A stretch of DNA of 64,000 nt from Miscanthus floridulus (Eukaryota; Streptophyta; Magnoliopsida; Poales; Poaceae), in contig NC_089581.1 in the NCBI RefSeq assembly GCF_019320115.1, positions 70,973,155-71,037,154 on the forward strand. The letters run 5' to 3'. Numbering within the stretch: position 1 is the stretch's first letter; each line of letters opens with the position of its first letter. The position numbers and the translations under genes are program-made. Under the pieces are notes generated by a model. That model saw only the letters and a list, made by a program, of their open reading frames with translations. It did no database searches and was not told the DNA's origin. Positions 7,145 to 35,307 of the stretch are shown here, one piece after another.

Positions 7145-9129
7145 CTATTGCATGCATATGCATAAGTGAGTCTCATGAATTCACAAGAGGAATCATAGAT
7201 GATGTGATATGGAAAGGTACATGCTGCGATAATAATGTTAAGTTACACCATGATAGCAATGCTAACTCCATATTAACTGAGTAGGTGCGTATCTCTTCTC
7301 TATCTACTTGCAAATTTCACACAAGGCAATGTCTAAGCTACACATAGCAGTTACAAGTTTACATCATAACTGAAGTTCTACTTATCCAAATGCTGTGATC
7401 TTGGACTTTCTGGAAATATTATAAAATTTCCTACAACTCATATTTAATCACAAAAAACTAATTCACACTCTATCCTAACTAAAACAGGCAATCTATCCAG
7501 TGCTGTCCAGAAATTCTAGAGAATAAGCATTTCAGAAAACTAACTTTAAACAGCTATAACTCCTAAACCCTTTGGCCTATTACCCTGAAATTTAAACACA
7601 AGATATATGAAGAAGTTCCCTACAACTTTGTTATTAACCATTTCCACATCAAACATCATTTTGACTATGCAACATACCCAACAACAGAATTTGTCCGAAA
7701 ACACTTCTAAATCAAATTATAAAGCAACAATATTTTTACTGCATATAAGCATTCCAAATTTGACATCACCAACTATACCAACAGTTTAGTAACATCAAAT
7801 ACACTCAAGAAAACATAATGGTAAAGCCCAAACTATTCATCTGAATGCCTTTATTAATTTAATTAGATAATTAGGGAAAATAACAAACATATAACAAATA
7901 TGCACAATAAATTATCAGAAAATTTCAGTGGCTTACAAGTGCTCTCAATAGACTACTATAAAATTTTCATGCCATTTGACCATGTATAACATCCTTTACA
8001 AAAAATGACAAGCTAGCATGGCCTATTTCAGTGAAAATAGTTAACCCTAAAGAAAAGTGTCAAACAATAGATTATATATTTTTCCTATCTTCATATTAGT
8101 GCCATACTACTGTATAAAAATTTGCATATCAATATGTTACATATTTTTATCCCTACAATTTTCCTTAGAAAATACCATTTATTACTAGATAAATAGAAAG
8201 ACCCTACTTCAATCAAGTTTACAGCAAGTTTATTATTTTTCCTAGCTCTATCATGTCCACATAAGACCAACAAAATTGGAATCACCATTTTATGAGTTTT
8301 TTAGCTCAAGATATCTATTTTACAAGATTACTAACATTCAAAAGGCACTTATTTAAATACATTTTAATCACCATGACAAATACTAGAAACTGTACATTTC
8401 ATATTTGTATAAAACACTACACTTCATGAGGATTACAAAAAATTTTGTTCACAAGAATTGGACATCTAGAACTCCACTTATGATTTTTCAAATTTTGTAT
8501 ACAAATCTGAAATAAATGAACTAGCTTTCAACTCTATAGCCGCTGACAGCTGGGGTCCCTGAGTCAGCCAGGACCATGCGTCAGTGACACAAAAATAGGG
8601 GAGTAGATCTGGCTGGCCGTAGTTCGGCGATGGCACCGGTACTATGAGCCTCCCCACTACATTCCACACATAGTGAGCAAACTAATTGGATTGATTACGT
8701 CCACTAACGGTGATGGCGGCGCTCATGGCGACATGGCGGAGCGGATCGACGGCGAGGCACCGGAGCTAGCTAAGACAACTTGATCTAGGGTTATGACGAG
8801 CTTCTACATACCATGGTGATTCTAGCGCACATCCTATCGTGGCAAATGATGGTCGGAGGCGTTCTAGCCACGGTGATGAAACGCCGGCGAGGGTCGCGCG
8901 CTGCGAGAAGACCTTACCATGCATGGCTAGCAAGCAAAGCGGGTGCGGTGAGGTAGTAGAAGCATGATGGAGCAATGCCTGCAGCGAAGGAGTGACACGA
9001 TGTGAGCTAGGTGGCCGGCAAGGCGACGGTGGTGCTGCGCTGAGCTGCTGCGGTGGAGGCGAGAGTGAAGGAGAAGGCAGGAGAGGAAATGAGTGCATGG
9101 GAGTGACTGAGCTAGGCGCAGGGTAGGTG

Positions 9130-9134
9130 AAGGC
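9130..9134. repeat. Target-site duplication AAGGC (left) of element C
   Basis: AAGGC at 9130-9134 and 21618-21622 flanks element C exactly, the 5-bp duplication expected for a gypsy insertion. Confidence 0.9.
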
Positions 9135-12100
9135 TGTCGCACCCAATTTTGCAAAGCAAAACCAAGTACTCATATATGTGCGCCCAGGATGTCCAAACAC
9201 ACACATATATCACAAATTGCAGTAGTATCAAAGTAAAGTACTTATTACATCGCATATCTCAACATAAAGTTAAATACAAAGTTTGCTCGAAGGCAATATT
9301 ATTACAAACACAGCGGAAAAACTAGCCCAACTGCCATAGGGACTCCAACTGGTGAACGTCTTCCTAGTAGTCCTGGACATCCTTCGGAAACTCTTCATAT
9401 CCATTATCTGTTACCCATCTGGGATTTTCATTTGATGTAAAGCAAGTGTAAGCTCACCATGCTTAGCAAGTATAACAAAGGGATCTATGAGGCTCAAATA
9501 GGCTTGACACTGTTTGACTGCGGTTCGCAATTTTAGTTGATCAATTTTTAACAACCTGAATTACTACTTTAATGAACAGTCCCAATTCCCAAGTGGTATT
9601 AAAGTACCATCCAGCTTTGTCTCAATTCCCAACCATCCATCATCCACAGTAACCACTAATCTCGAAGGATCCAGACCGCTCGTATCCGTGAGCACGGCTG
9701 TTATAACAGGTTAATTATTTCTGCAGAAATTGTACATCTTTACCCACCGAGCCATGATTCCCAATGCCGGGGTTCGCGAGACCCACTACACCTCTTCCTA
9801 GGAAGCGTGGCAGAGTTTCACTATGAAACCCTTAGCTAGTTGCACTAACAAATCATAGCTACAAAGGAATGGCACACGTGGGCATCGCAGCACGGTGCAC
9901 ACCCTAACAGAAAAAGGAAAGATACCCTCTTACCCCTTACTGGAGCTATAGACGAGCTAGTACAAACTAGATAATAGGTTAAAGTCAGAGCCATTTGACA
10001 CTCGGGGTTGTATGGTCCCTCCTGGGTTGCCGCTTTAGGATAAAGTCCTTATGGAGAGGCACTAGAGTACTCAACCCCGTACTCCAGCCCCCTATCTGTT
10101 GCTAAAAAAAACTCCATTTTATCACATTGCATATAGTCTTTAAATATGTTTAACAATTACTTCATGTTAAGCGCTGCAGCATCTATCCAAAATGCCTACC
10201 CAATAAACCCAGGTATCAAGGATATGTGGTACAATGAATCATCTAGGTAAAGTCCTTAAAGGCAATTCAAATTAAACTCATGCATAAATGTAAGTGGTAG
10301 TAGTTCATAGGTAACAAGGGGCCTTTGGTACACTTGCCTTCCTCAAAGTCATCTTGGGAATCCTGCTGATCCTGCTAGGGGTCCTTAGTCACCTCGAATG
10401 GCTCACCCTCTAATCATGATCCAATCATCAATCAAGCATCATTCCAATCATTACATGCATACAAGATAGAACTCTATTAGAACAGTACACCAAACAGTGA
10501 AAACATATGTTGAAAAGCTTACAAATCTGTTCTACGCATTTCTACGAACACATGAGCGAAAGAATCACCCAAATCGGACTTAAAACGTGAAAGTTATGCA
10601 TGAAATAAGATGTAATGGCAATTCTGTAAATAAACTAACCTATTTTCGAATTAAAATAATTAAAAATCTGAATTTAAATGAAATTTGGACCGGGCTTACT
10701 ATTTCTAGAAACTTTAGGGACTTGAATGAATAAAAACAGGACTAAATAAAAATTAGTTTGAACTGGACTGGACCGCGGGTTGATTTCTGGAAAAAGCGGG
10801 GGCTTTTCTGCAAAACATGCTCGGTTGACTGGGGTTTGACTCGTCTGCTGACTGGGCAGACACGTGGCGGTGACTGGTTGGTGCGGTGCACCATGTGGCG
10901 TGGGCCAGCTCTGACGCGGCACCGTGGACTAGGTCCGTGGGTCCACGGTGGACCGGTCATGCACCGAACAGGTACGTTTTAATCTTAGCCGTTCACCTAA
11001 GATCTAACGGCGCTGGTTCGTAGGCACGGAGGGATCGCCGGGGAAGAAAAGGGAGGCCGGCGGCGCCATGGCCGGTGCGCCGGGACCTTGGGCTACGGCT
11101 TCCTAGGGCGCCAAAACGAAAGCTGAGGGCACGGGAAGGTGGAGGGGCTCACCGTGAGTCACCTGGAGGGGAACGCGGCGTCCGAGAAGGCTCCGAGGAT
11201 GGTCGTCGACGGCGGCCGCGAACTGGAGAGAGAGAGAGAGAGCGTGGGTGAGGGTGTAGCCGGGCAAAACAGCGCCAAAATGCGAAATGGGATGTACCTA
11301 CGGGCGCGGGAAGATCCGGCAATGCTTCGGGTGGCCTTGGCATCGGCGTTCACGCTTAGAAGGGGGAGGCTCTCACTGGCGGCGGTGGCTCTCGGTAGCG
11401 GGCAAAGGTGGGGAGAGAAGGCGGGGTCGGCTCGGGGTTTTATAGGCCGGGTGGTGCGCGGAATAAGGAAGGGAAGCAGGGAGGGGCTCGGCACCTTCCA
11501 AACGGCGCCGGTGACTTTCCATCGGTGACGCGCCATGGCCGGGCAAAAGAAGGAAGCTTGGGGAAGAAGAAAGGAAAGAGGAAAGGGCGCTGACCAGTGG
11601 GGCCGGAGCGCAGCGAGAGAGAAAGAGAGAGGGCGAGCGACACGGGTGAAGCCAAGCAGGTCGCAGCGACGTGCCGTCGCGCAAAGCGAGCCGCAGCGAA
11701 GCAGCAGCTAGGCCGCCGAGTTGGTGCGCGCGCGCGGGTGGCCAGCTGGGCCGCGTGGGGTGTGGGCCAGTGTGCTGATGCGGGCCACATGCGGTGCGGG
11801 CCGCGTGCGGTGCGGGCCGGCGTGACAGGCCGCCGAGACAGGCCAGCGGGAGGAGGAGGGGGAAGAGGGCCGGGCTAGCTGGGCCAGAAAGTGTCTTTCT
11901 CCCTTTTTTTCAAATCAAATGTTTATCAAATTCTACTTTCTCCATTTTCATTTTTAAGCCAAATTCAAATAAGTTTTGAATACAAATTTCAAATCATCTA
12001 GCCCTACACTCAATCAAAACCCATATGACTCGGCATGAATGCAACAAACAAGTTTCTAAACTTATAGTTTATTTTATTTATTCAATATTTATTATTTGGC

Positions 12101-22904: not shown

Positions 22905-22949
22905 TGTTGACACCGTTTTTTGCACGTGTCAAAATAATCGGAGTGGACT

Positions 22950-23202
22950 AATCGGCAAGGGGAAAGTTATTGGATACTTTGATAACCGATGAAAGCCAGC
23001 TTGTAAAGATGGTTGCCGATAGCTGGTGATGGTCGATGGAAAGGTTGATTTGGACTCGGACGTTGCCGATGAGGTTGGAGGTGGTGTTGTCAATATGCCG
23101 ATGAAGGAAGGCTGGAAGACTACTGCCGATGAAACAGGGAATATGCCGATGAAGGGAGGCTTGAGGACTACTGCCGATGAAACAGGGAGTATGCCGATGG
23201 GA
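22950..23202 (+). promoter_or_regulatory. U3 cluster of GCCGAT motifs with 48-bp tandem repeats
   Basis: Eight GCCGAT/ATCGGC sites lie in about 250 bp upstream of the TATA box. Tandem units 23095-23142 and 23143-23190 (48 bp each), plus a partial third, each carry two sites. The same array is in the 3' LTR from 34677. Position and density suggest a binding array controlling the promoter; this is inference. Confidence 0.6.
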
Positions 23203-23370
23203 AGGAGGATGGTGAGATTTCCATCGTAATTGAGGCGGACAGGGAAATAGATAGGAGTTGATTTCCTTTTCTATATTAGTTAGAGTATGATTCGTGTAAG
23301 AGTCATGTGTTTCCTTAAGATATGGGATTGGTGTCCTAGTTGTGTTCGGTTGTGTCTCTTTAGATCAGGG

Positions 23371-23380
23371 TATAAATATG
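23371..23380 (+). promoter_or_regulatory. TATA box of element D 5' LTR
   Basis: TATAAATATG, mid-LTR, conserved in the 3' LTR (34953-34960). Confidence 0.7.
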
Positions 23381-23762
23381 GAGTAAGGGGCAATGTAAAA
23401 AGATATATCAATCAACATAAAAACCAACTTTTATTCCTATTTGCATCTACTTACTTTTCGGCGACTTCGTCAATTTGCATATTTTCTTTCTTTTTACGAG
23501 TTCTCATTGATTCGGCGAGCTGCATCGTTTCAGTACGACCTTCGGCGATTCTCGAGTTCCGCGTGAACACCTCTTGGCCGTGACTTCCGGGCGTATCGCT
23601 GTTGTCAGGACCAAAGTGTTCGTATCTTCATCCTTGTCGATTAGCAGGTCAAATCGACTGGCACGCTTTGGATATCGATTCGGGTATTAGCCCTTTGTGT
23701 TTGCAGATCCACTTTTGCATCAACACATCTTTTGGCACGCTCGGTGGGACCAATCAATCAAT

Positions 23763-26700
23763 ATGTTCAATCTCGAGATCGATGCAGGGAACATTATCGC
23801 AGTATCAGAAGAAGATCTCAAGGAAGAATAGAGGCAGGCTATGGAAAAGGCTGTAGAAGAATATAAGCAGCTTTGTCTAAGATCGTTTAGCTTGAACAAG
23901 AGTGGACAAGTCATCCAGAAGCAAGATTTGCCGTTGCCTCGGCAGGTTACCTTTGACTCCAATCCTGGTAAACTTCAAGAGATGGTTAATTCTGCAGTAA
24001 ATCATGCTTTGATTAATCATTCCAATGTGCTGTCCAATACTGTTCATAATGCTGTGGTTCGAACTCTCATAGAGGGACAAGTGGCACCACATTACGTCGG
24101 GCCTGCCTATCATCAACCAGAGCCGACATCTGTCAAAACTCTATCGGCTCCTTCGGCCGTTGTGGGTACAGAAGTTTCTTCCCCTCCAGTATCGGCAGGT
24201 TCACCTAATATTCAATCTACACCGATACGATCAGATCAGGTACTACCAGGAGGGCGAATTCAGCTTAATACAGATCTATCGGCATCAGCTATGTCAGGCC
24301 CTGTGTCTCAGAATAGCCAGATTCCTACTAATTGGTGGGGATATGGTATGCCTCCGGAGTCATCTGTTTTCAATCCTAGATTACCTCAAGTGTTTGATGC
24401 AGTAGGGAGAGCTCCTATACCATCGGCTATTTCGCCGATGGCTCAAGTGCCTCAATATGCCGCAGCTACTTCTGTGCAACCAACTCCAGGAGGTTTCCAG
24501 ATGCCTATGGTTCAAACATTCAATTCAAATCCATCGGCGAGCTTACTGCCGATGCAGCAGAAAGCCCCTGCTATGAGTCAAACTGGGGTTCAGTTCATGC
24601 CTCAAACCGGTTATAATTATCCAACAATATCAGCAAATTACCAGCCATCGGTAAGTTTTGTACCGATGAGTTCTAATAATGATTGGTCAGGACAATTACC
24701 TGTTCAACATACAGTTCAGCGAAATCAGCAGGTCGCAGGGATTCAACAAGGTCATATGCAAGCTGGTTTCCAGAATCAAGCATCGGCAGCTCAGCCGATG
24801 AATCCTTTCCAACAGGCTAATGGACCACAAGCAACGGCAAATATGCCGATTGCTGGAGATCGTGGGCCACAAAGATATGTGGAGGGATGTCAGCAGGTAC
24901 CTCCGGTAGAAGTTCAACCAGTTCGTCAGCAGGAGGCTGATGCTTTTTGGGCCGATAAGATAGCAGAAATTATGAAGGATCAGTTTGGGATAAAGCCCAA
25001 GGTCAATACGTATTCTTATCGGACTCCGTACCCTCCTGCATACGATTTAATTCCTCTCCCAAATCGGTACAAGGTACCGGATTTCACTAAATTCTCTGGG
25101 CAAGATGATACAACAACAATGGAACATGTCAATCGCTTCATTATTCAATGTGGAGAGGCAGCTAACAGAGATGAATTAAGAGTTCGATTATTTTCATCAT
25201 CTTTGTCTGGATCAGCATTTACATGGTTCATTTCATTACCACCAAATTCTATTATTACTTGGGTTGATCTAGAAAAACAATTCCATAAGTATTTCTTTGC
25301 TGGAATCCATGAAAAGAAGCTTACCGATTTAGTAAAATTGAGACAGCGTAATGATGAATCGGTAGAAAGCTTTGTACAAAGGCTACGAGATGTAAAAAAT
25401 AAGTGCTACAGCCTGGTGCTGGATGATCGGCAGCTTGCCGATCTGGCTTTCCAAGGGTTATTGCCACATCTTAAAGACAGATATGCTTCTCAGGAGTTTG
25501 AAAGCCTCAGTCATCTTGTGCAAAGGATCTCTGATCAAGATACTAGGGTTTTTGAACCTAAAAAGAATTGGAGTAAAAAGGTATCATTTGTTGAAGAAGT
25601 AGGAGATTCTGACTCTGATGAAGAACCAGTTATCGGCTTAGCTGAGTGGGTTAAGAATAAAAAGCCGATATCATGTCCCTTTGGTCAAAAAGAGCCAGAA
25701 AAGTTTACCTTTGATATCACCAAGGCCGATAAAATATTTGATCTTCTGCTTCAAGAGGGCCAAATTAAGCTGTCACCTAATCATGTGATCCCATCGGCAG
25801 AAGAGTTGAAGAAGATCTTGTACTGCAAATGGCACAATGCAACTTCACACAGTACAAATGAGTGCAAGGTATTCAGGCAATAGTTACAATCGGCTATTGA
25901 ATCTGGGAGAATTAAGTTTGGTACTTCCAAGGCCCAGAAGCCGATGAAAATTGATCAACACCCTTTTCCAGCAAATATGTTGGATGCCAAAGGAAAGACC
26001 AAGGTATTAACGTCAGAGGCTGCTGAGAAAAACGCGTCAGTAGACCCCCAACATCGGATAACTACCGATGATGCAAAAAGTAAGGGTTTGCTAGGAGAAA
26101 GCAGTAGTTCCAAAAATCCTCCTAGACCTGGCATTGTAATTACTCATCGAAGGCAGCAGGAGGGTTAGCGTCAACGTAATGACCGATATCGACAACAGCA
26201 AGAAGTGAGACGTCAGGAAGAATGGAATCGACATAAAGATCATTGGAGATGTCCGTTTTTCATCCATTGCTGGGAAGAAGGTATTAAATTGCCAACTGTT
26301 GAAAATTGCCCTGAGTGTAATGGTTATTACGGAGTCAATCGCTCAGAAAGAAGGTTTCAACATGGTAATCAGGGTTTGTCTATCAATGAGCCGATCAGAG
26401 GCAGAGCATCAGTGCATGATCGGCTGGGGGGCAGACTTAGTGTACATGAGAGGCTTGGTAAACGCGCTGGATATTTTCCAAGGAATCAAGAGGAGCTTGA
26501 GGAGATGGCAAACGCAAGAGTTCCCGATGAGGAAATATTCTACAGGGACCCTAATATACGTCGTGTAGAATCAACTAGGACTTGTTATCAGCCGGTTTGG
26601 AAAACCAAGTTTCCTCGATGGTGCCCAGAGGGTCTGACAAAGACGCAGAGAAGGAGGATGCAACGTGAGCGTCAGGAGGATTTATACCAAGAGGAAAATT

Positions 26701-27440
26701 CCTCCAATGAAAGGCCCGGTCATCAGCAGTGGCAGGTAAAACACAAAAATAAGGGTCCATCGGCAGATGTTAATATGGTATTCATGTTGCCGATGGAGTT
26801 TTTGGCACTATCTGATAATGAGGAAGAAGTTGTTCTCTCTGATCAAGTAGCTCAGTTAACACTAGATCCAATGATGGCTGTTTTTGAGAAACCTACCGAT
26901 GACGAGAGACAGCATCTTAAGGCTTTATTTGTGAAGGGCAGAGTTGATGGGCAGCCTGTGTCTAAGGTACTTATTGATGGAGGGGCTGCGATTAATATTA
27001 TGCCTTACGTGATGTATCGGAAACTTGGTAAGGGAGATCAAGACTTGACCAAAACCGATATGATGTTGAAAGATTTTGAAGGCAATGTGTCACCGGCTAA
27101 AGGGGCAGTGTGCGTTGAATTGACCATCGGCAGCAAAACCTTGCCAACGACGTTCTTTGTTATTAACGGCAAAGGTGCATATAATCTGCTTCTAGGGAGG
27201 GATTGGATTCATGCTAATTGTTGTGTTCCTTCTACAATGCATCAATGCCTCGTACAGTGGATTGGGGATAAGATTGAGGTCGTCCCTGGTGATTCTTCTT
27301 ATATCATCGCATCGGCAGAATCAGATACTTATGAGCGGACTAAATGCATATCAGGAGAAGCTTGGGAAAAAGAGTTCCTTAGAGTTGCTGATTATGAAAT
27401 TCCACCGATCCAAGCAGTCGGTTCTGAAGAGGAGTTTTAA
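23763..27440 (+). pseudogene. Element D gag-protease, one frame with three TAG stops
   Basis: The frame starts at the ATG at 23763 (MFNLEIDAG) and runs unbroken in phase to a TAA at 27438-27440, except for TAG at 23829-23831, 25881-25883 and 26166-26168. The first ~400 residues are a proline/glutamine-rich linker. The gag domain lies at about 25070-25500 (KFSGQDDTTTMEHVNRF, FTWFISLPPNSI, VKLRQRNDESVESFVQRLRD). Zinc-binding stretches follow (CKWHNATSHSTNEC, CPFFIHCWEEG, CPEC). The protease active site is KVLIDGGAAINIMPY near 26970, with Asp-Gly-Gly as is usual in Tat elements. Each TAG lies one C-to-T change from a CAG codon. The last domain overlaps pol by one base. Confidence 0.88.
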
Positions 27441-30400
27441 TGGATAGGTTTGCCGATGATGGAAAATTAGGTCAAGGGTTCACATCGGCAGATGATTTGG
27501 TAGAAATAGATATTGGTGATGGTGATAGGTCAAGACCTACTTTTATTAGTGCTAAGTTAGATTCCAAGTGTAAGCAGCGAGTAACAGATTTGTTAAAAGA
27601 ATATAAAGATTGTTTTGCTTGGGATTATACTGAGATGCCTGGATTAGACCGATCGATAGTTGAACATCGGTTACCTATCAAATCTGGATTTCGGCCACAT
27701 CAGCAGCCAGCGCGCCGATGCAACCCTAATGTACTTCCTGACATTAAGGCCGAAATAACTAAATTAATTGAAGCAAAGTTTATTCGGCAATGTCGATACG
27801 CAGAGTGGATCTCTAATGTGGTTCCTGTTTATAAGAAAAATGGAAAACTTCGTGTTTGTATTGATTTCAGGAATCTCAACAAAGCCACACCAATGGATGG
27901 TTATCCAATGCCGATTGCTGATTTGTTGATTGATGCTGCGGCTGGACATCAAATTATCAGTTTCATGGATGGTAATGCAGGTTACAATCAAATATTCATG
28001 GCTGAGGAAGATATTCCCAAGACTGCTTTCAGATGTCCAGGTCATGTGGGGTTGTTCGAGTGGATAGTCATGACATTTGGTTTGAAAAATGCCGGTGCTA
28101 CCTATCAAAGAGCTATGAACTTTATTTTTCATGAATACATCGGCACATTAGTGGAGATCTACATTGATGATGTAGTGATTAAGTCTGGAGATATCACAGC
28201 ACATTTAGCCGATCTGCGAAAGATACTGGAGTGCACAAGGAAGCATGGATTGAAGATGAATCCTAATAAATGTGCATTTGGTGTATCGGCAGGACAATTC
28301 TTGGGTTTTATGGTGCATCAGCGAGGCATTGAAATCAGTAGGAAGTCTATTGATGCAATTAACAAGGTGATTGCTCCTGCCAATAAGACTGAATTGCAAT
28401 CCTTGATCGGTAAGATTAATTTCATTAGAAGATTCATATCTAATCTGTCGGGTAGGATCAAGGCTTTCAGCCCACTACTTAAATTAAAAGCTGATCAGGA
28501 ATTCATATGGGGAGTTGAACAGCAATTAGCCCTTGATGAAATTAAGAAATATTTATCAAATCCTCCAGTGTTAGTTCCACCTCAACATGGAAAGCCTTTC
28601 AGATTATATTTGTCAACTGATGATACAGTTATCGGTTCAGCTCTTATTCAAGAATTTGAAGGGAAAGAACGTGTTATTTATTATTTGAGCAGAAGGTTAA
28701 TGGATGCTGAGACGAGGTATTCGGCCATCGAAAAATTGTGTCTGTGTTTATACTTTTCTTGTGTCAAATTAAGGCATTATTTGTTATCTGCCGAATGTAC
28801 GGTCATATGCAAAGACGATGTGGTCAAGTATATGTTGTCGATGCCGATATTAAGTGGTAGAATCGGCAAATGGATTTTAGCATTATCAGAATTTGAGCTA
28901 CGTTACGAGTCAACTAAGGCAGTTAAAGGGCAAGTGATGGCTGATTTTGTTACTCAGCATTGTAATACAGTGGACTCTCTTGAGATTGCTCCCTGGACAC
29001 TTTTCTTCGATGGGTCCACATGTGGTGAAGGAGCAGGTATCGGCATTGTGTTGATTTCACCTTTAGGGAAGAAGTATGAGTTTTCATTGCCGATTGTTGC
29101 TACAGCAACAAACAATCAAGCTGAGTATCAAGCCTTGATAAAAGGGTTAGAATTGCTGAAGGAGATACGTGCTGATGTTGTTGAAATCTTTGGTGATTCT
29201 ATGCTAATTATAAATCAATTGGCTGGAAGTTATGAATGCCGAAGTGGAGCTTTGATTTCGTATTATGAAAGATGTTTGCAATTGTTGAAAGGATTTAGAG
29301 GTTTTCGTCTTGAACATATCTCTCGATTGCATAATGAGGAAGCTAATCGACTAGCTCAGCATGCTTCAGGGTATCAGCCTATTCAGGAAGTGCTAGCATC
29401 GGCAGTTGATACCGATGACTGGAGGAAAGAGATTGTCGATTATTTAAAGGATCCACATAGAAAGGTTGAGAGACGTATAAGGTTCCAAGCTACCAAATAT
29501 GTGCTCCTCGATGATGAATTATATTATCGAACTATAGATGGAGTTTTACTTAGATGTGTCAGCAATGATGAATCGAAAAGCTTGATGGGTGAAATTCATG
29601 AAGGAGTATGTGGGGCACATCAATCGGCTTTCAAGATGAAATGGATGATCAGAAGGAACGGATACTATTGGCCGACTATTCTTGAAGATTGTTTTAAGTA
29701 TTTTAAAGGATGCCAGGGGTGTCAAAAGTTTGGTAATATTCAAAGAGCGCCTGCATCGGCTATGAATCCTATAATCAAACCGTGGCCGTTCCGGGGATGG
29801 GCTATTGATCTCATTGGTCAGATTTATCCGCCATCGAGTAAAGAACATAAATTTATCCTGGTTGCTACCGATTATTTTACAAAGTGGGTTGAGGCAATTC
29901 CTTTGAAAAAGGTGACATCGGTCAATATGATTGATTTTGTGAAAGAGCATATTGTTTACCGATTTGGTATTCCTCAGACTATCACTACCGATCAGGGCAC
30001 TATGTTTACATCAGGAGAATTTGATGAGTTTGCTGTAGGTATGGGAATTAAAATTTTAAATTCTTCTCCATATTATGCTCAAGCTAATGGTCAAGCTGAG
30101 GCTTCTAACAAAGGGATCATCAAACTCATTAAGCGCAAAATTGAAGAAAATCCTAGGAGGTGGCATACAGTATTAAATGAAGCCTTGTGGTCATATCGGA
30201 TGTCATGTCATGGTGCAACCAAAGTAACGCCTTATCAGTTAGTATATGGACACGATGCAGTATTGCCTTGGGAAATTAAGGTTGGCTCTAGACGAATACG
30301 TTCTCAAGATCAGCTGACAGCCGATGATTATAATACTCTTATGAAGGATGAGTTGGAAGATGTGGCGGGTCATCGGTTAAGGGCTTTAGTTAGTATCGAA

Positions 30401-30676
30401 GAAAATAAGAAAAGAGTAGCTAGATGGTATAACAAGAAGGTGAAAGTAAAAGAGTTTGCCGATGGAGATCTGGTCTGGAAATTGATTTTACCGATTGGGA
30501 CTAAAAGTTCAAAGTTTGGAAAGTGGTCTCCTAATTGGGAAGGTCCATATCGGATAAATCAGTCTGTTCCTGGTAATGCATATATTTTAGAAACCCTTGA
30601 AGGGGTTGTGTTTCCCAGAGCGATAAATGGAAAATATTTAAAGAAATATTACCCTAGTATCTGGATAGATGCATAA
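27440..30676 (+). CDS. Element D pol: RT, RNase H, second RNase H, integrase
   Basis: A 1,078-codon open frame. RT spans about residues 115-300 (CIDFRNLNKATPMDGYPMP, FMDG at 176-179, YIDDVV at 241-246). The first RNase H spans about 388-500. The second, cellular-type RNase H spans 518-645 (LFFDGSTCGEGAGIG, AEYQALIKGLELL, FGDSMLIINQL), diagnostic of the Tat lineage. The integrase zinc region is at 720-765 (HQSAFKMKWMIRRNGYYWP, CQGCQKFG). The catalytic core has D790, D851 and E887. The C-terminal part ends in a basic/aromatic NGKYLKKYYPSIW. The start ATG overlaps the stop of gag-protease (TAATG, -1 phase). This is the longest open gene in the window. Twenty or so GCCGAT motifs lie in it, read in different codon phases. 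Confidence 0.92.
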   Translation: MDRFADDGKLGQGFTSADDLVEIDIGDGDRSRPTFISAKLDSKCKQRVTDLLKEYKDCFAWDYTEMPGLDRSIVEHRLPIKSGFRPHQQPARRCNPNVLPDIKAEITKLIEAKFIRQCRYAEWISNVVPVYKKNGKLRVCIDFRNLNKATPMDGYPMPIADLLIDAAAGHQIISFMDGNAGYNQIFMAEEDIPKTAFRCPGHVGLFEWIVMTFGLKNAGATYQRAMNFIFHEYIGTLVEIYIDDVVIKSGDITAHLADLRKILECTRKHGLKMNPNKCAFGVSAGQFLGFMVHQRGIEISRKSIDAINKVIAPANKTELQSLIGKINFIRRFISNLSGRIKAFSPLLKLKADQEFIWGVEQQLALDEIKKYLSNPPVLVPPQHGKPFRLYLSTDDTVIGSALIQEFEGKERVIYYLSRRLMDAETRYSAIEKLCLCLYFSCVKLRHYLLSAECTVICKDDVVKYMLSMPILSGRIGKWILALSEFELRYESTKAVKGQVMADFVTQHCNTVDSLEIAPWTLFFDGSTCGEGAGIGIVLISPLGKKYEFSLPIVATATNNQAEYQALIKGLELLKEIRADVVEIFGDSMLIINQLAGSYECRSGALISYYERCLQLLKGFRGFRLEHISRLHNEEANRLAQHASGYQPIQEVLASAVDTDDWRKEIVDYLKDPHRKVERRIRFQATKYVLLDDELYYRTIDGVLLRCVSNDESKSLMGEIHEGVCGAHQSAFKMKWMIRRNGYYWPTILEDCFKYFKGCQGCQKFGNIQRAPASAMNPIIKPWPFRGWAIDLIGQIYPPSSKEHKFILVATDYFTKWVEAIPLKKVTSVNMIDFVKEHIVYRFGIPQTITTDQGTMFTSGEFDEFAVGMGIKILNSSPYYAQANGQAEASNKGIIKLIKRKIEENPRRWHTVLNEALWSYRMSCHGATKVTPYQLVYGHDAVLPWEIKVGSRRIRSQDQLTADDYNTLMKDELEDVAGHRLRALVSIEENKKRVARWYNKKVKVKEFADGDLVWKLILPIGTKSSKFGKWSPNWEGPYRINQSVPGNAYILETLEGVVFPRAINGKYLKKYYPSIWIDA

Positions 30677-30761
30677 AAGTATAGGTGCCGATAACAGTAC
30701 TATCGGTTAGAATTATGCAAGGATGTCAATGTCTCATAAAGTGCCGATACAATAAATAAGA

Positions 30762-33700
30762 TTACACGTTCAACAAGGATTGGATAGCTAATATCGCACG
30801 CAGGCGAATCTGGTCGGCTTCCTCCATTTCCTTGATATCGTCATCGGCGGCACCCTCCACAGGCTTGAGTTTTTTCTTCATGGCTAAAGCTTTGCGAGCT
30901 TGGATATCTCTTTCTTGCTGAAGGGTCTTGATGGCATCGGGTAGCTGGTTTTCTTCTTGTTGGGCATGAGTTAAGGCTGCCTCAACTTCCTTCAGTTCAG
31001 CCAATAGAGCCATCTTCCTTGCTGATAAATCTAAGATTTTCTGCTTAAGTTCAGCGCCCGAAGTCTGCAAGTTGCCGATGCCCTTGTGCTTCTCATCGGC
31101 AATCTGTTTCAGTTGTAGCATCTCTTCTTTGAGTTGAGCCTGAGTTGCTCTATCGGCAATGCGCTGAGCAGCCTGTTGATATTGCAGTTGGTGACTTTCT
31201 AAGTGAGCTGCTGGGAAAAGTGCTTCTTCTACATCGGCAGGGACCTGGCCACGAATTGTTTTGAAAATTGCCTTTGCGGGGTCCGAGTCATCTACCAGCT
31301 GGGCGGTACCTTGCTGTAGCAAGTTCAAGAGGGCTTCCAACTTGGATTTAGTCTCTGCCGATATTGTTCCCAGTGCAAGGGAGGAACTTGTCTCCTCTCC
31401 ATCGTCATCAGAAATGTCAATGGCAAAGGAAAATAGGCTGTTCGGGGAGTCTTGTTCCTGAGAAAGAGAGAAGGAGATCAGTTAGGGGTAAGTATGAGTA
31501 TTGTAAATCAACTAGGCTGATCGGTTTACCTGTTTCAAGGCAATTTCTTGTGCTTGACTGGAGGAAGCAACCTGGAGTATGTCGTGTGGGGGATCGGCTG
31601 AGCTTGCCGATGGGATATCCTCTGTGACTTCATCGATGGTGGGCTCTTGAGGTATGACTGCCGATAACATTGGGGCAGATGTAGGGATCAGCATAGACCT
31701 TTGTCGTTTTGGCTGTGCTTCAGTATCTGTTGAAGCTTTGCGTTTTGCTTGGGCATCGGCAACGATGGGCTGGGGGGCATCGACGCTTGTTGGTTGTAAA
31801 GCTTGGACATCTGGTACGATTGCCGATGTACCCAATTGTTGCTGCAAAACAAGTGTAAGAGATGATATTTAACAAGTAAAATGTAAAGTCGAGAAGCTAC
31901 CTCTGAAGGTTCATCGAAGGAAGTGGTGCTTGATATCGGCGGAATTGCCGATGACGATCCAGTAGCAGCCCTTACCCCCTGATGATTAAGGTTAATACAG
32001 TTTGTGATCGGCATAAGTAAAAATAAACGAGGTTGTTACCTTAAATGCTTTGACCAAGGTTGTAGCAGCAGCCGATGGAGTAGCCCTGGATGTAGCCAAT
32101 TTGGACTTGGAAGTGATGGTCTTGGTACGAATCTTCTGGTGGGTTAAAGCGGCTAAGGTGGGAGCGTTGTAGCCAATCAGCGATGTTGGGGAAACAGGCC
32201 GGAGATTGAAGGGTTTCCCACTTTTGCTCACCGATGGAGCTGGGTTGTTAACCTGTTACAAGAGAATCGGTTACTGATATATGAAGGGAAAAGCAGAAGG
32301 GAGTTAAAGGAAACTTACCGCATCGTCAGGGATGGCGTATTCAGGGTCGATCATGTGCCGATATGTGTGAGCAGAAGTTGCGAACAGTTGTTCTTTCCAC
32401 TCTTGCCACCATTGCTTATATGACTCGGTGATGAAAGATATTGGTGTCCAGGTGGATATATCAACATCTGTAGTATCGGCATCAGGGGAGAGTTGTACTA
32501 CCTTGTTCCAATCTGTTCCGCAGGTGATTGTTTCCCTAGGTTTGATCACATCGGCAAAGCAGAGTTTGATCGGCAATTGCCCAAAAGCCAATTGGCGGGA
32601 TACTGCCGATGGGTTGTAAAATTCATACGTAATGTTGGTGTTTTTCCCGCTGCCGAATGTGTTTACTGGAATTGCCCTGGGAGTGATGATAGCCATCATG
32701 AGCTCATTATCTTGATTCAGAGTGTCATCGGCAAAGTTGAAAAGAAGGGGGAATCTGTTTTCTTCGTCAATATAAGGCACCCAGGCCCTATGATCACGAG
32801 AAAGACCATTGTAGAAGCTTTGAAAGAATCTGCCGATTTGGTCTTCGTTGGCTTCTGTTCCAGGAAGGACAATTATGGCTTCACCAAAATTGAGGGGTGA
32901 GCGTGTTGCCGATTCATCATCCCCAAGCACATGGTCTTCAGCAATTTCTCATGGGAATTGTTGAGCAAAAAAGTCTCATTGCAAACGTTTGTGCATATGG
33001 GCATTCAGCCACATGTTGATAAACCACCACGGGCCTCCCAGGTTGCCGATGGGTTCGCCGAGCAAAAGTTTCTGAGACACTTGATGAAGAAGATGATAAG
33101 TGGAGCTCAGAAGGTATCGGCCAAGAGGAAACCTTACGCCATTAGCCAAAAGTTCAGCTGCGGGGAGGAAGGCGTTGGTTGGTCCTACTGATCGACCACA
33201 GAAGATGAATTTTTCCAACCACATATTCAGGAATGTGGCATGTTCCCTCTGGTTAACTGTCCCGGTCTTCTGGTATTCTTGAATGTATCCTGTCCAACCG
33301 CCGATGTTGCGGGTATTTACCCTGTATTCAGACTTTCTACCATAGATGGAGCCTTCATCGGCAGTTGAGATGTCCAAGCCAGTAAGCATATGGATATCGG
33401 CAAGGGTAGGAGTGGCTGGGCCATGTCCAAACATAAAAGTATTGGTCGTGTCTGACCAGAAATAAGCAGCTGCAATTATCATTGATTCATTTTTCTGCAT
33501 ATCGGCAATAGATAGCCTAATGCATTGGTCTAATCTTCGTTCTGCCCAGTATACTTGCATTGATCTATTAACTCTCAAGTACCAATCTTTCCACCCCTTG
33601 GTGGTTTTGGGCCAAGATCGGAATGTGTCTTTCCACAAATTCAGAGAGAAATTTTGGGCTCTAAAGGGGATTCTGTTAACTTCTGCATTGATCAGATCGG

Positions 33701-33905
33701 TTGGATCTGGATTGCCCATTGGTCCGAGGCATTGGACGTGCGGCTGATCGGTTGGGATAATTAATTTGTTGCGCAGTTCCTAAGGTTATAGAATCCAGAG
33801 AATAGAAGAAAGGAAAAATCACCAACTGAATGAATTTGCGAGAAGATCAAAGTAAAGGGTAATGGAAGTGGAGCGAACCGCGGGAACGTCGAAGTTGATG
33901 GCCAT
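30762..33905 (-). pseudogene. Antisense six-exon plant-mobile-domain gene of element D (two in-frame TGA)
   Basis: Exons on the minus strand: 33905-33879 (MAINFDVPA), 33779-32319, 32252-32040, 31978-31901, 31841-31530 and 31457-30762. All introns start GT, end AG and fall between codons (phase 0). The first donor is weak; the others are good (GCG|GTAAGT, AAG|GTAACA, GAG|GTAGCT, CAG|GTAAAC). The total is 929 codons with stop. Exon 2 holds a PMD: ESMIIAAAYFWSDTTNTFMF, TLADIHMLTGLDI, WWFINMWLNAH. Exon 5 has a bipartite basic cluster (KRK at about 626, KRQR at about 638). Exon 6 is an acidic patch and a long coiled coil. TGA codons at 32976-32978 and 32949-32951 break exon 2 in this copy. It has its own TATA box and ATG context CCATGG. 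Tat elements often carry antisense extra genes; the function is unknown. Confidence 0.78.
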
Positions 33906-34047
33906 GGTCTTGAGGAAACTTGAAGTTAGCGCCGGAGGAGGGTTCTTCTTGGTTGAGGTCGCGCGGTTGTTCGTCGGAGTCGCCGCCGGAGAGAGAAAAT
34001 GCCAAGGATTGGAGGCTGAAAGTAGAAAATGAGGGTTCCGGAGAAAT

Positions 34048-34060
34048 CTATTTATAAGCC
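34048..34060 (-). promoter_or_regulatory. TATA box of the antisense gene
   Basis: The minus strand reads GGCTTATAAATAG, about 145 bases upstream of the ATG at 33905. This implies transcription independent of the LTR promoters and convergent with gag-pol. Confidence 0.6.
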
Positions 34061-34471
34061 GCCCAGAGTAAGGGTATTTTGGACTTATCTCTATATCGCG
34101 CGCATATAGGTCGAGACGGTTCAGAAAGATATGGTAACTGTTCGCACGATAATCAGGGGATTGTACAGATGAGTTGATGACAAGTAATCATGACTTGGAA
34201 GGGATATCGATACAGGATATTTTAATTTTGAAAATGGCAGCATTATCATGTTAAGATCTTGCCGATGGGTTATTGCTTCGGTATCTTAACCATAATCAGG
34301 GCAAGAGTGGTTGGTGATTGTGCGATATTTAGTGAAGTGCGTGAATCAAGATTAGATTTGATTGGATTTGATAACAAATCAAGTTTTGGCTTGGAGAATG
34401 AGTTACGGTAATCGGGTGAAGGCAAGCGTTATCTGGAGTAAATTTCGGAGCATTAATGGTTTTATACTCCG

Positions 34472-34486
34472 AAATTGGGGGGCATG
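34472..34486 (+). promoter_or_regulatory. Polypurine tract of element D
   Basis: AAATTGGGGGGCATG lies directly before the 3' LTR. Confidence 0.75.
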
Positions 34487-35307
34487 TGTTGACACCGTTT
34501 TTTGCACGTGTCAAAATAATCGGAGTGGACTAATCGGCAAGGGGAAAGTTATTGGATACTTTGATAACCGATGAAAGCCAGCTTGTAAAGATGGTTGCCG
34601 ATAGCTGGTGATGGTCGATGGAAAGGTTGATTTGGACTCGGACGTTGCCGATGAGGTTGGAGGTGGTGTTGTCAATATGCCGATGAAGGAAGGCTGGAAG
34701 ACTACTGCCGATGAAACAGGGAATATGCCGATGAAGGGAGGCTTGAGGACTACTGCCGATGAAACAGGGAGTATGCCGATGGGAAGGAGGACGGTGAGAT
34801 TTCCATCGTAATTGAGGCGGACAGGGAAATAGATAGGAGTTGATTTCCTTTTCTATATTAGTTAGAGTATGATTCGTGTAAGAGTCACGTGTTTCCTTAA
34901 GATATGGGATTGGTGTCCTAGTTGTGTTCGGTTGTGTCTCTTTAGATCAGGGTATAAATATGGAGTAAGGGGCAATGTAAAAAGATATATCAATCAACAT
35001 AAAAACCAACTTTTATTCCTATTTGCATCTACTTACTTTTCGGCGACTTCGTCAATTTGCATATTTTCTTTCTTTTTACGAGTTCTCATTGATTCGGCGA
35101 GCTGCATCGTTTCAGTACGACCTTCGGCGATTCTCGAGTTCCGCGTGAACACCTCTTGGCCGTGACTTCTGGGCGTATCGCTGTTGTCAGGACCAAAGTG
35201 TTCGTATCTTCATCCTTGTCGATTAGCAGGTCAAATCGACTGGCACGCTTTGGATATCGATTCGGGTATTAGCCCTTTGTGTTTGCAGATCCACTTTTGC
35301 ATCAACA
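34487..35307 (+). repeat. 3' LTR of element D
   Basis: 821 bp. It differs from the 5' LTR at three sites that I can find: ggaCGgtg for ggaTGgtg, gtcaCGtg for gtcaTGtg, and cttcTGgg for cttcCGgg. All three are CG-to-TG changes. Confidence 0.93.

What the first reader, a model, noticed from the sequence alone, without database searches (positions are those of the whole stretch)
22905..35307. GCCGAT/ATCGGC saturates element D from end to end
Counting by eye I find about 90 copies of GCCGAT or its complement in 12.4 kb (about 73 internal, 8 in each LTR), often extended to TGCCGATR. Chance predicts about four to six. The other 51.6 kb of the window has about six. The motif occurs in LTRs, gag, pol, the antisense gene's exons and introns, and spacers. 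In coding regions it is read in different phases: Ser-Ala (24143), Pro-Met (24436), Ala-Asp (24951), Ile-Gly (28139). So protein constraint cannot explain it. It contains a CpG, which decays fast in methylated DNA, so persistence implies selection or recent accumulation. Known parallel: VANDAL DNA transposons of Arabidopsis accumulate short motifs bound by their own VANC anti-silencing protein. I infer an analogous self-recognition system in a retrotransposon.
Basis: partly seen in the sequence, partly recalled or inferred. Interest (0 to 1): 0.9.

Follow-up and report, generated by a model that had tools for sequence, protein, structure and literature searches.

The report
Retrotransposon filled with self-recognition sites
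A young jumping element in what is probably a grass genome carries 89 copies of one six-letter DNA word where about five are expected, eight distantly related elements carry the same word mostly with a different letter before it, and the word is likely a docking site for a protein that the element itself is predicted to make, perhaps to protect its own copies from silencing.

Summary
It beats a dinucleotide null (4.5) and a codon-preserving null (64 in ORFs vs 12.0±3.0, maximum 25 of 2000). The host genome was searchable. Eight of 8 divergent LTR families fetched at 10 kb that match D's antisense gene (DUF1409 in 8, plant mobile domain, PMD, found in 6) are also saturated (21-40 per 8.5-10 kb; 2.3-4.0 expected), mostly at different positions. 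The core GCCGAT is shared, but the commonest preceding base is T in D and A in all eight others. Close pairs favour one head-to-head layout: ATCGGC-N6-GCCGAT, 7 seen, 0.35 expected. Genome-wide, ATCGGCT-N4/N5-AGCCGAT occurs 2833/3217 times, N3 11 times, the opposite orientation 26 times (control 18). Thirty distant PMD loci, two TRP28 loci and the rest of the window lack the enrichment. So this looks like a maintained double-stranded DNA site with dimer geometry. I infer that the antisense PMD protein binds it as a self-recognition, probably anti-silencing, system: it works like VANC/VANDAL, but in an LTR retrotransposon and within coding DNA. Binding and anti-silencing are untested.

The parts
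22905..23725 (+). 5' LTR, 821 bp, 8 motif copies, 5 of them in a 48-bp tandem array at 23092-23199
23844..25883 (+). gag ORF (Retrotrans_gag), 17 motifs
26169..27440 (+). aspartic protease ORF, 6 motifs
27428..30676 (+). pol ORF: RT, RNase H, second RNase H-like domain (RVT_3), integrase; 16 motifs
32976..33779 (-). antisense gene, PMD segment (PF10536, E 2.4e-22); 6 motifs; strongly conserved between copies (dN/dS 0 to 0.05 in the five of six pairs with synonymous differences)
32304..32948 (-). antisense gene, segment following the PMD; in the window's copy the frame is interrupted between the two segments, whereas 72 of the 90 D-like matches listed (best-scoring candidates only) have no stop; 8 motifs
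30765..31481 (-). antisense gene, last large segment, weak DUF1409 match (E 2.5e-4, below the curated cut-off); 6 motifs
24422..24439 (.). head-to-head pair ATCGGC-N6-GCCGAT (in gag)
24782..24799 (.). head-to-head pair ATCGGC-N6-GCCGAT (in gag)
31935..31952 (.). head-to-head pair ATCGGC-N6-GCCGAT (antisense gene region)
34487..35307 (+). 3' LTR, 8 motif copies

Best explanation
The repeated word (W)RCCGATR, which fills element D from end to end and, mostly with a changed base before its core, also fills eight divergent related families, is likely a double-stranded DNA binding site kept by selection for a protein that would bind as a dimer, and that protein is predicted to be the product of the element's own antisense PMD gene. 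Shown: enrichment over codon and dinucleotide nulls; presence in all eight divergent families sampled at 10 kb through DUF1409 or PMD hits; turnover of most positions; a family-specific base before the core (T in D, A elsewhere); a favoured head-to-head pair geometry; no enrichment at distant PMD loci and in the rest of the window; strong purifying selection on the PMD segment. Inferred: that the PMD protein is the binder. Inferred further: that binding along the whole body lets the protein distinguish its own family from the rest of the genome and oppose silencing of it, as VANC does for VANDAL elements; protein from one copy could then act in trans on all copies, which would explain selection for many sites in both LTRs and body.
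For: Counts and nulls. Close copies L039, L040, L042: 73, 67, 71 per 10 kb. Divergent families L043-L050, at most 78% identical to each other in the aligned parts: 35, 24, 22, 40, 21, 39, 37, 36 observed against 2.3-4.0 first-order and 3.8-7.1 second-order (divergence). Nine further 2.3-kb PMD-gene pieces from one group of related copies: 39 in total against 4.5. Only 11 of 114 D-site comparisons in aligned coding DNA have the motif at the same place in the other family; at several of those the base before the core switches T to A. Base before the core: D T49 A15 C6 G3; the 17 loci L043-L059 A179 G62 T39 C10, chi-square p 1e-21. Pairs 6-16 bp apart: 14 inverted, 2 direct; all 7 pairs at distance 12 are ATCGGC..GCCGAT, 0 of 5000 position shuffles reach 7; with one decayed half-site 8 at distance 12 against a mean of 1.84. 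Genome-wide ATCGGCT-N4-AGCCGAT 2833 (control 8), N5 3217 (control 2), N3 11 (control 3), opposite orientation 26 (control 18). Negative controls: 30 distant PMD loci, their PMD at most 26% identical to D's or below detection, 34 observed, 44.4 expected; two TRP28 loci 2 and 1 against 2.1 and 0.6; rest of window 8 against 12. Strand symmetry (38/35) speaks for DNA, not RNA. PMD segment dN/dS 0-0.05 between close copies. Precedent: promoters of genes that need the PMD proteins MAIN/MAIL1 share a short DNA motif (PMC7156037, passages).
Against: No binding data exist here. All eight 10-kb families were picked through DUF1409 or PMD hits, so motif and antisense gene were not sampled independently; in two of the eight (L043, L049) no PMD segment was found in the stretch fetched. 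PMD-less relatives were sampled only by two 2.6-kb TRP28 pieces that match no D protein and so are not shown to be close relatives. Distant PMD loci lack the motif, so the PMD alone does not specify it. The PMD has no relative with a solved structure at the thresholds used (one hit at E 0.89, none) and AlphaFold models were poor (mean pLDDT 42 and 50), so no DNA-binding fold could be shown. Purifying selection is not uniform: the following segment gives 0.82 in two close pairs with very few changes, and PMD pair L051/L052 gives 0.78. Extra retention of motif CpGs is modest (p 0.015), absent in the LTRs (21/24 vs 92/102) and not significant in subfamily L060 (23/30 vs 50/81, p 0.18). Density is weaker in some relatives (2 in 2.3 kb for L053 and L057). 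The genome-wide pair counts are inflated by copy number, N6 did not complete, and those loci could not be read (letter cap); of 100 listed C1 places only one lies within 12 kb of a C1 PMD hit compared. With one decayed half-site, distance 40 scores higher (10) than 12 (8). The MORC1 copy of the 'DOWN' motif (CATGCAGTTT, PMC9899485) is unlike GCCGAT.
Confidence: 0.5

Rival explanations
1. The motif is bound by a host protein (a transcription factor, for instance of a class that recognises CCGA-type cores) that the elements exploit for transcription; the element makes no binder of its own.
For: LTR clusters of 8 sites; in the eight families GCCGAC is mildly enriched too (39 vs 13.5), which resembles the RCCGAC core of DREB factors (recalled, not tested).
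Against: Sites are about as dense in gag, pol and antisense ORF segments as in the LTR; a promoter does not need 73 internal sites. The flank change between families sharing one host is not expected of one host factor. The motif is not enriched in the rest of the window.
Confidence: 0.2
2. The motif is recognised by another element protein, for example integrase or gag, as a self-targeting or packaging signal.
For: Present throughout the element, in families with gag and pol.
Against: Equal on both strands, so not an RNA signal in one sense; overlapping palindromes ATCGGCCGAT (distance 4) cannot form a hairpin loop; the other gypsy-like pol regions of the window lie in sequence without the enrichment.
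Confidence: 0.12
3. A mutational or copying bias (template switching, gene conversion or CpG protection) rather than selection spreads the motif.
For: Inverted pairs could arise by template switching; motif CpGs decay somewhat less.
Against: Sites lie mostly at different places in different families, with a narrow pair spacing and one orientation and a family-specific flank; swaps with ACCGAT are the commonest non-CpG change. A copying bias predicts longer shared flanks, which the base counts around the internal sites do not show.
Confidence: 0.1
4. Chance, composition or codon constraint.
For: None found.
Against: Dinucleotide, second-order and codon-preserving nulls all exceeded.
Confidence: 0.01

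Closest known systems
VANC/VANDAL sequence-specific anti-silencing system (Arabidopsis transposons; PMC5735166 and PMC10398659, passages read)
   Same: A short motif is highly enriched in one TE family and rare elsewhere; related families carry differing motifs; the TE codes for an extra protein; density rather than single sites sets the family apart.
   Different: VANDALs are DNA transposons (recalled as MULEs); VANC motifs lie mainly in non-coding tandem repeats, same orientation; here an LTR retrotransposon, motifs equally in coding DNA, both strands, head-to-head pairs; binding is shown for VANC21 there, unproven here.
Tat/Retand-type Ty3/gypsy elements with antisense additional ORFs (PMC11963269, PMC7264820, passages read)
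   Same: Long pol-to-3'LTR region with an antisense gene; the antisense TRP28 protein is predicted there to bind DNA and its role is called unknown.
   Different: D has a PMD/DUF1409 gene and no TRP28 match; no motif saturation is mentioned in the passages read; two TRP28 loci sampled here lack GCCGAT enrichment.
MAIN/MAIL1 PMD proteins and the DOWN motif (PMC7156037, PMC9899485, PMC5418596, passages read)
   Same: PMD family protein linked to a short DNA motif and to transposon silencing; PMC5418596 reports PMD clades coded only by gypsy elements.
   Different: Host genes; motif in promoters (CATGCAGTTT at MORC1), not GCCGAT; direct binding not shown there either.

Membership tests
VANC/VANDAL anti-silencing system | Short motif enriched in the family's own copies and rare elsewhere | tested here: met
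   (elsewhere: the rest of the window and 32 control loci, not the whole genome)
VANC/VANDAL anti-silencing system | Motif mostly in non-coding tandem repeats, same orientation | tested here: not met
   64 of 73 internal motifs lie in ORF segments, 38/35 by strand; only the LTR has a 48-bp array
VANC/VANDAL anti-silencing system | Related families have diverged motifs | tested here: met
   commonest base before the core T in D, A in eight families; core unchanged
VANC/VANDAL anti-silencing system | Element is a DNA transposon | tested here: not met
   LTRs, gag, RT, integrase; no transposase match in the 8 segments scanned
VANC/VANDAL anti-silencing system | Element protein binds the motif and causes hypomethylation | not testable with these tools
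   needs EMSA/ChIP and bisulfite data
Tat lineage of Ty3/gypsy | Second RNase H between RNase H and integrase (recalled criterion) | tested here: met
   RT_RNaseH 388-489, RVT_3 527-646, rve 787-883 of pol
Tat lineage of Ty3/gypsy | Antisense ORF between pol and 3' LTR | tested here: met
   30765-33779 minus strand
Tat lineage of Ty3/gypsy | Reverse transcriptase phylogeny | not tested
   no lineage reference set used
PMD (PF10536) protein family | Match above the curated cut-off | tested here: met
   80 bits against 34.9, E 2.4e-22
Retand TRP28 antisense proteins | PF04195 domain | tested here: not met
   no match in the 8 segments of D scanned

The most novel reading that the evidence does not exclude
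A whole lineage of plant LTR retrotransposons has written an address code into its own body: a dimeric antisense-encoded PMD protein reads scores of RCCGAT sites spread through LTRs, gag, pol and its own exons, each group shifting the letter before the core to keep its own address, so that the protein shields its own family from silencing in trans.
Probability: 0.35. Interest if true: 0.93.

Novelty: new variant of a known kind. Interest (0 to 1): 0.82.

Why it matters
If true, sequence-specific self-recognition by a transposon is not a peculiarity of Arabidopsis VANDALs but evolved separately in LTR retrotransposons, the largest component of many plant genomes, and can override coding sequence. 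It gives a testable job to the antisense genes of Tat-type elements, whose function is called unknown in PMC11963269 and PMC7264820 (passages), and to the plant mobile domain, whose function is called undetermined in PMC5418596 (passages). The motif, its flank switch and its pair spacing make direct, cheap binding tests possible.

Tried and rejected
Chance, composition and codon constraint were rejected. An RNA hairpin reading of the close pairs was considered and set aside: strands are equal, and distance-4 palindromes (3 of them head-to-head) have no loop; head-to-head distances that recur are 12 (7 times), 4 and 21 (3 each). A high ACTCGGCA/TGCCGAGT count in L047 lies at 8547-9678 only and looks like a nested insertion (CACTA-type subterminal repeats, recalled); bases after 8450 were dropped before the L047 count (22 to 21 motifs). 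L041 (flank of a C19 LTR hit) held no match to the element's proteins and 11 motifs per 10 kb against 3.8 and was not counted as a family. Searches of viral contigs with pol and with PMD alignment A1 found no relatives. Structure prediction gave unusable models, so no fold search was run. L002, L004 and L007 gave no plus-strand alignment and added nothing to its counts. Genome searches with proteins P0041 and P0021 did not complete and not repeated. The N6 spacing and a T-flank pattern were asked but did not complete. Paper searches for GCCGAT with retrotransposon and for retrotransposon motif self-recognition or anti-silencing listed nothing describing this; of those results only the listings, and of PMC12859917 passages, were seen.
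Full report
OBSERVATION. D is a young element: two 821-bp LTRs with 3 mismatches, and a target duplication CCTTG flanking 22905-35307 (sequence). Expected numbers are 4.5 (first order) or 9.9 (second order); no other 6-mer in the 12-kb stretches scanned comes near, overlapping words apart. Shuffling synonymous codons within seven ORF segments leaves 12.0 on average, never more than 25 in 2000 trials, against 64 seen. All reading phases and both strands are used.

THE MOTIF. Around 73 internal sites the base before the core is T in 49 and A in 15, and the base after is G or A in 57. Of the 18 one-letter neighbours ACCGAT is strongly enriched (28 vs 3.5), GCTGAT moderately (21 vs 7.5), GTCGAT (z 2.9) and GCCGAA (z 2.4) slightly; the other 14 have z below 2. 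Between D and three copies, changes into or out of GCCGAT are mostly CpG transitions and swaps with ACCGAT (in the LTR only ACCGAT swaps). So the site is best written (W)RCCGATR.

THE ELEMENT. gag, protease and pol with RT, RNase H, a second RNase H-like domain and integrase, then an antisense gene at 33779-30765 with a plant mobile domain (PF10536, E 2.4e-22) and a weak DUF1409 match. In the window's copy the antisense frame is interrupted; 72 of the 90 D-like matches listed have no stop in that stretch (the list holds only the best-scoring candidates). The PMD segment evolves under strong constraint among four copies: dN/dS 0-0.05 in five of six pairs, the sixth having no synonymous change, with dS up to 0.15. 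The following segment is less clear (0.82 in two pairs with very few changes, 0.10-0.15 in the three with L042). The only organism name among the 120 proteins listed is a Saccharum hybrid (P0026, PMD plus DUF1409); the host is therefore probably a related grass (inference). The genome has 2.68 Gb.

RELATED ELEMENTS. The genome was searched with the LTR, PMD, DUF1409, a 54%-identical PMD protein and a PMD piece of L046. Three close copies have 73, 67 and 71 motifs per 10 kb. Eight divergent families, seven chosen by DUF1409 hits and one (L048) by a PMD hit, and all that were fetched at 10 kb, have 35, 24, 22, 40, 21, 39, 37 and 36 against 2.3-4.0 expected (first order; 3.8-7.1 second order). 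D's PMD segment is found in 6 of the 8; in L043 and L049 it was not found in the stretch fetched. Their aligned parts are 66-78% identical to each other, and 70-73% to D in the seven pairs with an alignment over 200 bp. Nine 2.3-kb pieces of the PMD gene from a further group of related copies (L051 and L052 95% alike; L054-L057 and L059 83-90%; L058 85% to L045) hold 2-9 each, 39 in all against 4.5, a weaker density. In aligned coding DNA 11 of 114 comparisons at D sites show the motif at the same place: some sites are inherited, most positions turn over while density stays.

FLANK SWITCH. Before the core, D has T49 A15 C6 G3; the other 17 loci (L043-L059) have A179 G62 T39 C10 (chi-square p 1e-21). 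Each of the eight 10-kb families differs from D on its own (p 6e-4 or less), and A is the commonest base in each. At several places where D and another family share a site in coding DNA, the base before it has changed from T to A, at others it has not. This is what co-evolution of a binding protein and its sites could leave.

PAIR GEOMETRY. Of 16 pairs 6-16 bp apart, 14 are inverted. Seven are ATCGGC-N6-GCCGAT, start distance 12: three in D, one in L043, three in L048, in different parts of the elements judged by coordinates; 0.35 are expected and none of 5000 shuffles reaches seven. Head-to-head distances 4 and 21 recur three times each. Pairs with one decayed half-site show 8 at distance 12 against a mean of 1.84, though distance 40 scores 10. 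Genome-wide the A-flank form ATCGGCT-N4-AGCCGAT (distance 12) occurs 2833 times and N5 (distance 13) 3217 times; N3 occurs 11 times (control 3) and the opposite orientation 26 times (control 18). High-copy families inflate the first two, N6 did not complete, I could not read those loci, and of 100 listed C1 places one lies within 12 kb of a C1 PMD hit compared. A favoured orientation and narrow spacing are the mark of a dimer on double-stranded DNA (inference).

CONTROLS. Thirty PMD loci brought in by the Pfam model (about 4 kb each), whose PMD is at most 26% identical to D's or not detected by tblastn, hold 34 motifs against 44.4 expected; three near-identical ones among them (L012-L014) have 3 each against 0.9. 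Two antisense TRP28 loci hold 2 and 1 against 2.1 and 0.6; they match no D protein in the 2.6 kb fetched. The rest of the window, including two pol regions 31-32% identical to D's, holds 8 against 12. So neither a PMD as such, nor gypsy coding capacity as such, brings the motif.

SELECTION. Motif 6-mers of D are kept in three copies in 200 of 213 comparisons against 621 of 705 for other CpG-centred 6-mers (p 0.015); for the most diverged copy L042, 66 of 71 against 185 of 234 (p 0.007). In the LTR there is no difference (21/24 vs 92/102), and in subfamily L060 it is not significant (23/30 vs 50/81, p 0.18; 7 losses, 5 gains). Comparisons share the window's copy and are not independent.

MECHANISM. 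Shown: a widespread, strand-symmetric DNA word with dimer-like geometry and a family-specific flank, in elements that carry a constrained antisense PMD gene. No solved structure resembles the PMD in sequence, and my models were too poor to use. Inferred further: anti-silencing. In Arabidopsis VANC binds a motif dense in its own VANDAL family and removes silent marks (PMC5735166, PMC10398659, passages); host PMD proteins MAIN and MAIL1 act in transposon silencing and in expression of genes that share a promoter motif (PMC5418596, PMC7156037, PMC9899485, passages). A TE-coded PMD that opposes, or decoys, that pathway at its own copies fits both. Rough odds: maintained DNA-binding site 0.85; PMD protein as binder 0.55; anti-silencing as purpose 0.4.

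KNOWN OR NEW. It works like VANC/VANDAL but is not a member: the element class differs, and the non-coding tandem arrangement was tested and not met. Antisense genes of Retand elements have been proposed as regulators, with predicted DNA binding for TRP28 (PMC11963269, passages), but the searches named in Tried and rejected listed no report of a saturating motif in LTR retrotransposons.

Noticed in passing
window 33780-34486: The 707 bp upstream of the antisense gene hold a single motif, the sparsest long part of the element's internal region, although the gene body is dense.
   Followed up: no
G000 C1:27726556 and C1:27726789; C1:4522102 and C1:4522577: Head-to-head motif pairs recur about 233 or 475 bp apart at several places, as if a high-copy family carries a tandem array of about 235 bp with one pair per unit.
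   Followed up: no
L042 against window 32976-33779: Synonymous divergence of the PMD segment (0.15) is more than twice that of pol (0.06) between the same two copies, suggesting recombination between subfamilies.
   Followed up: no
L047:8547-9678: A dense ACTCGGCA/TGCCGAGT cluster, probably a nested DNA transposon, with a core that overlaps the GCCGA word of the host element.
   Followed up: partly
L043-L050: GCCGAC is mildly enriched beside GCCGAT (39 vs 13.5) in the A-flank families but hardly in D (3 vs 1.9).
   Followed up: no
window 32949-32978: The antisense frame of this young copy is interrupted although most listed copies are open, so this copy would depend on protein made by other copies.
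   Followed up: partly
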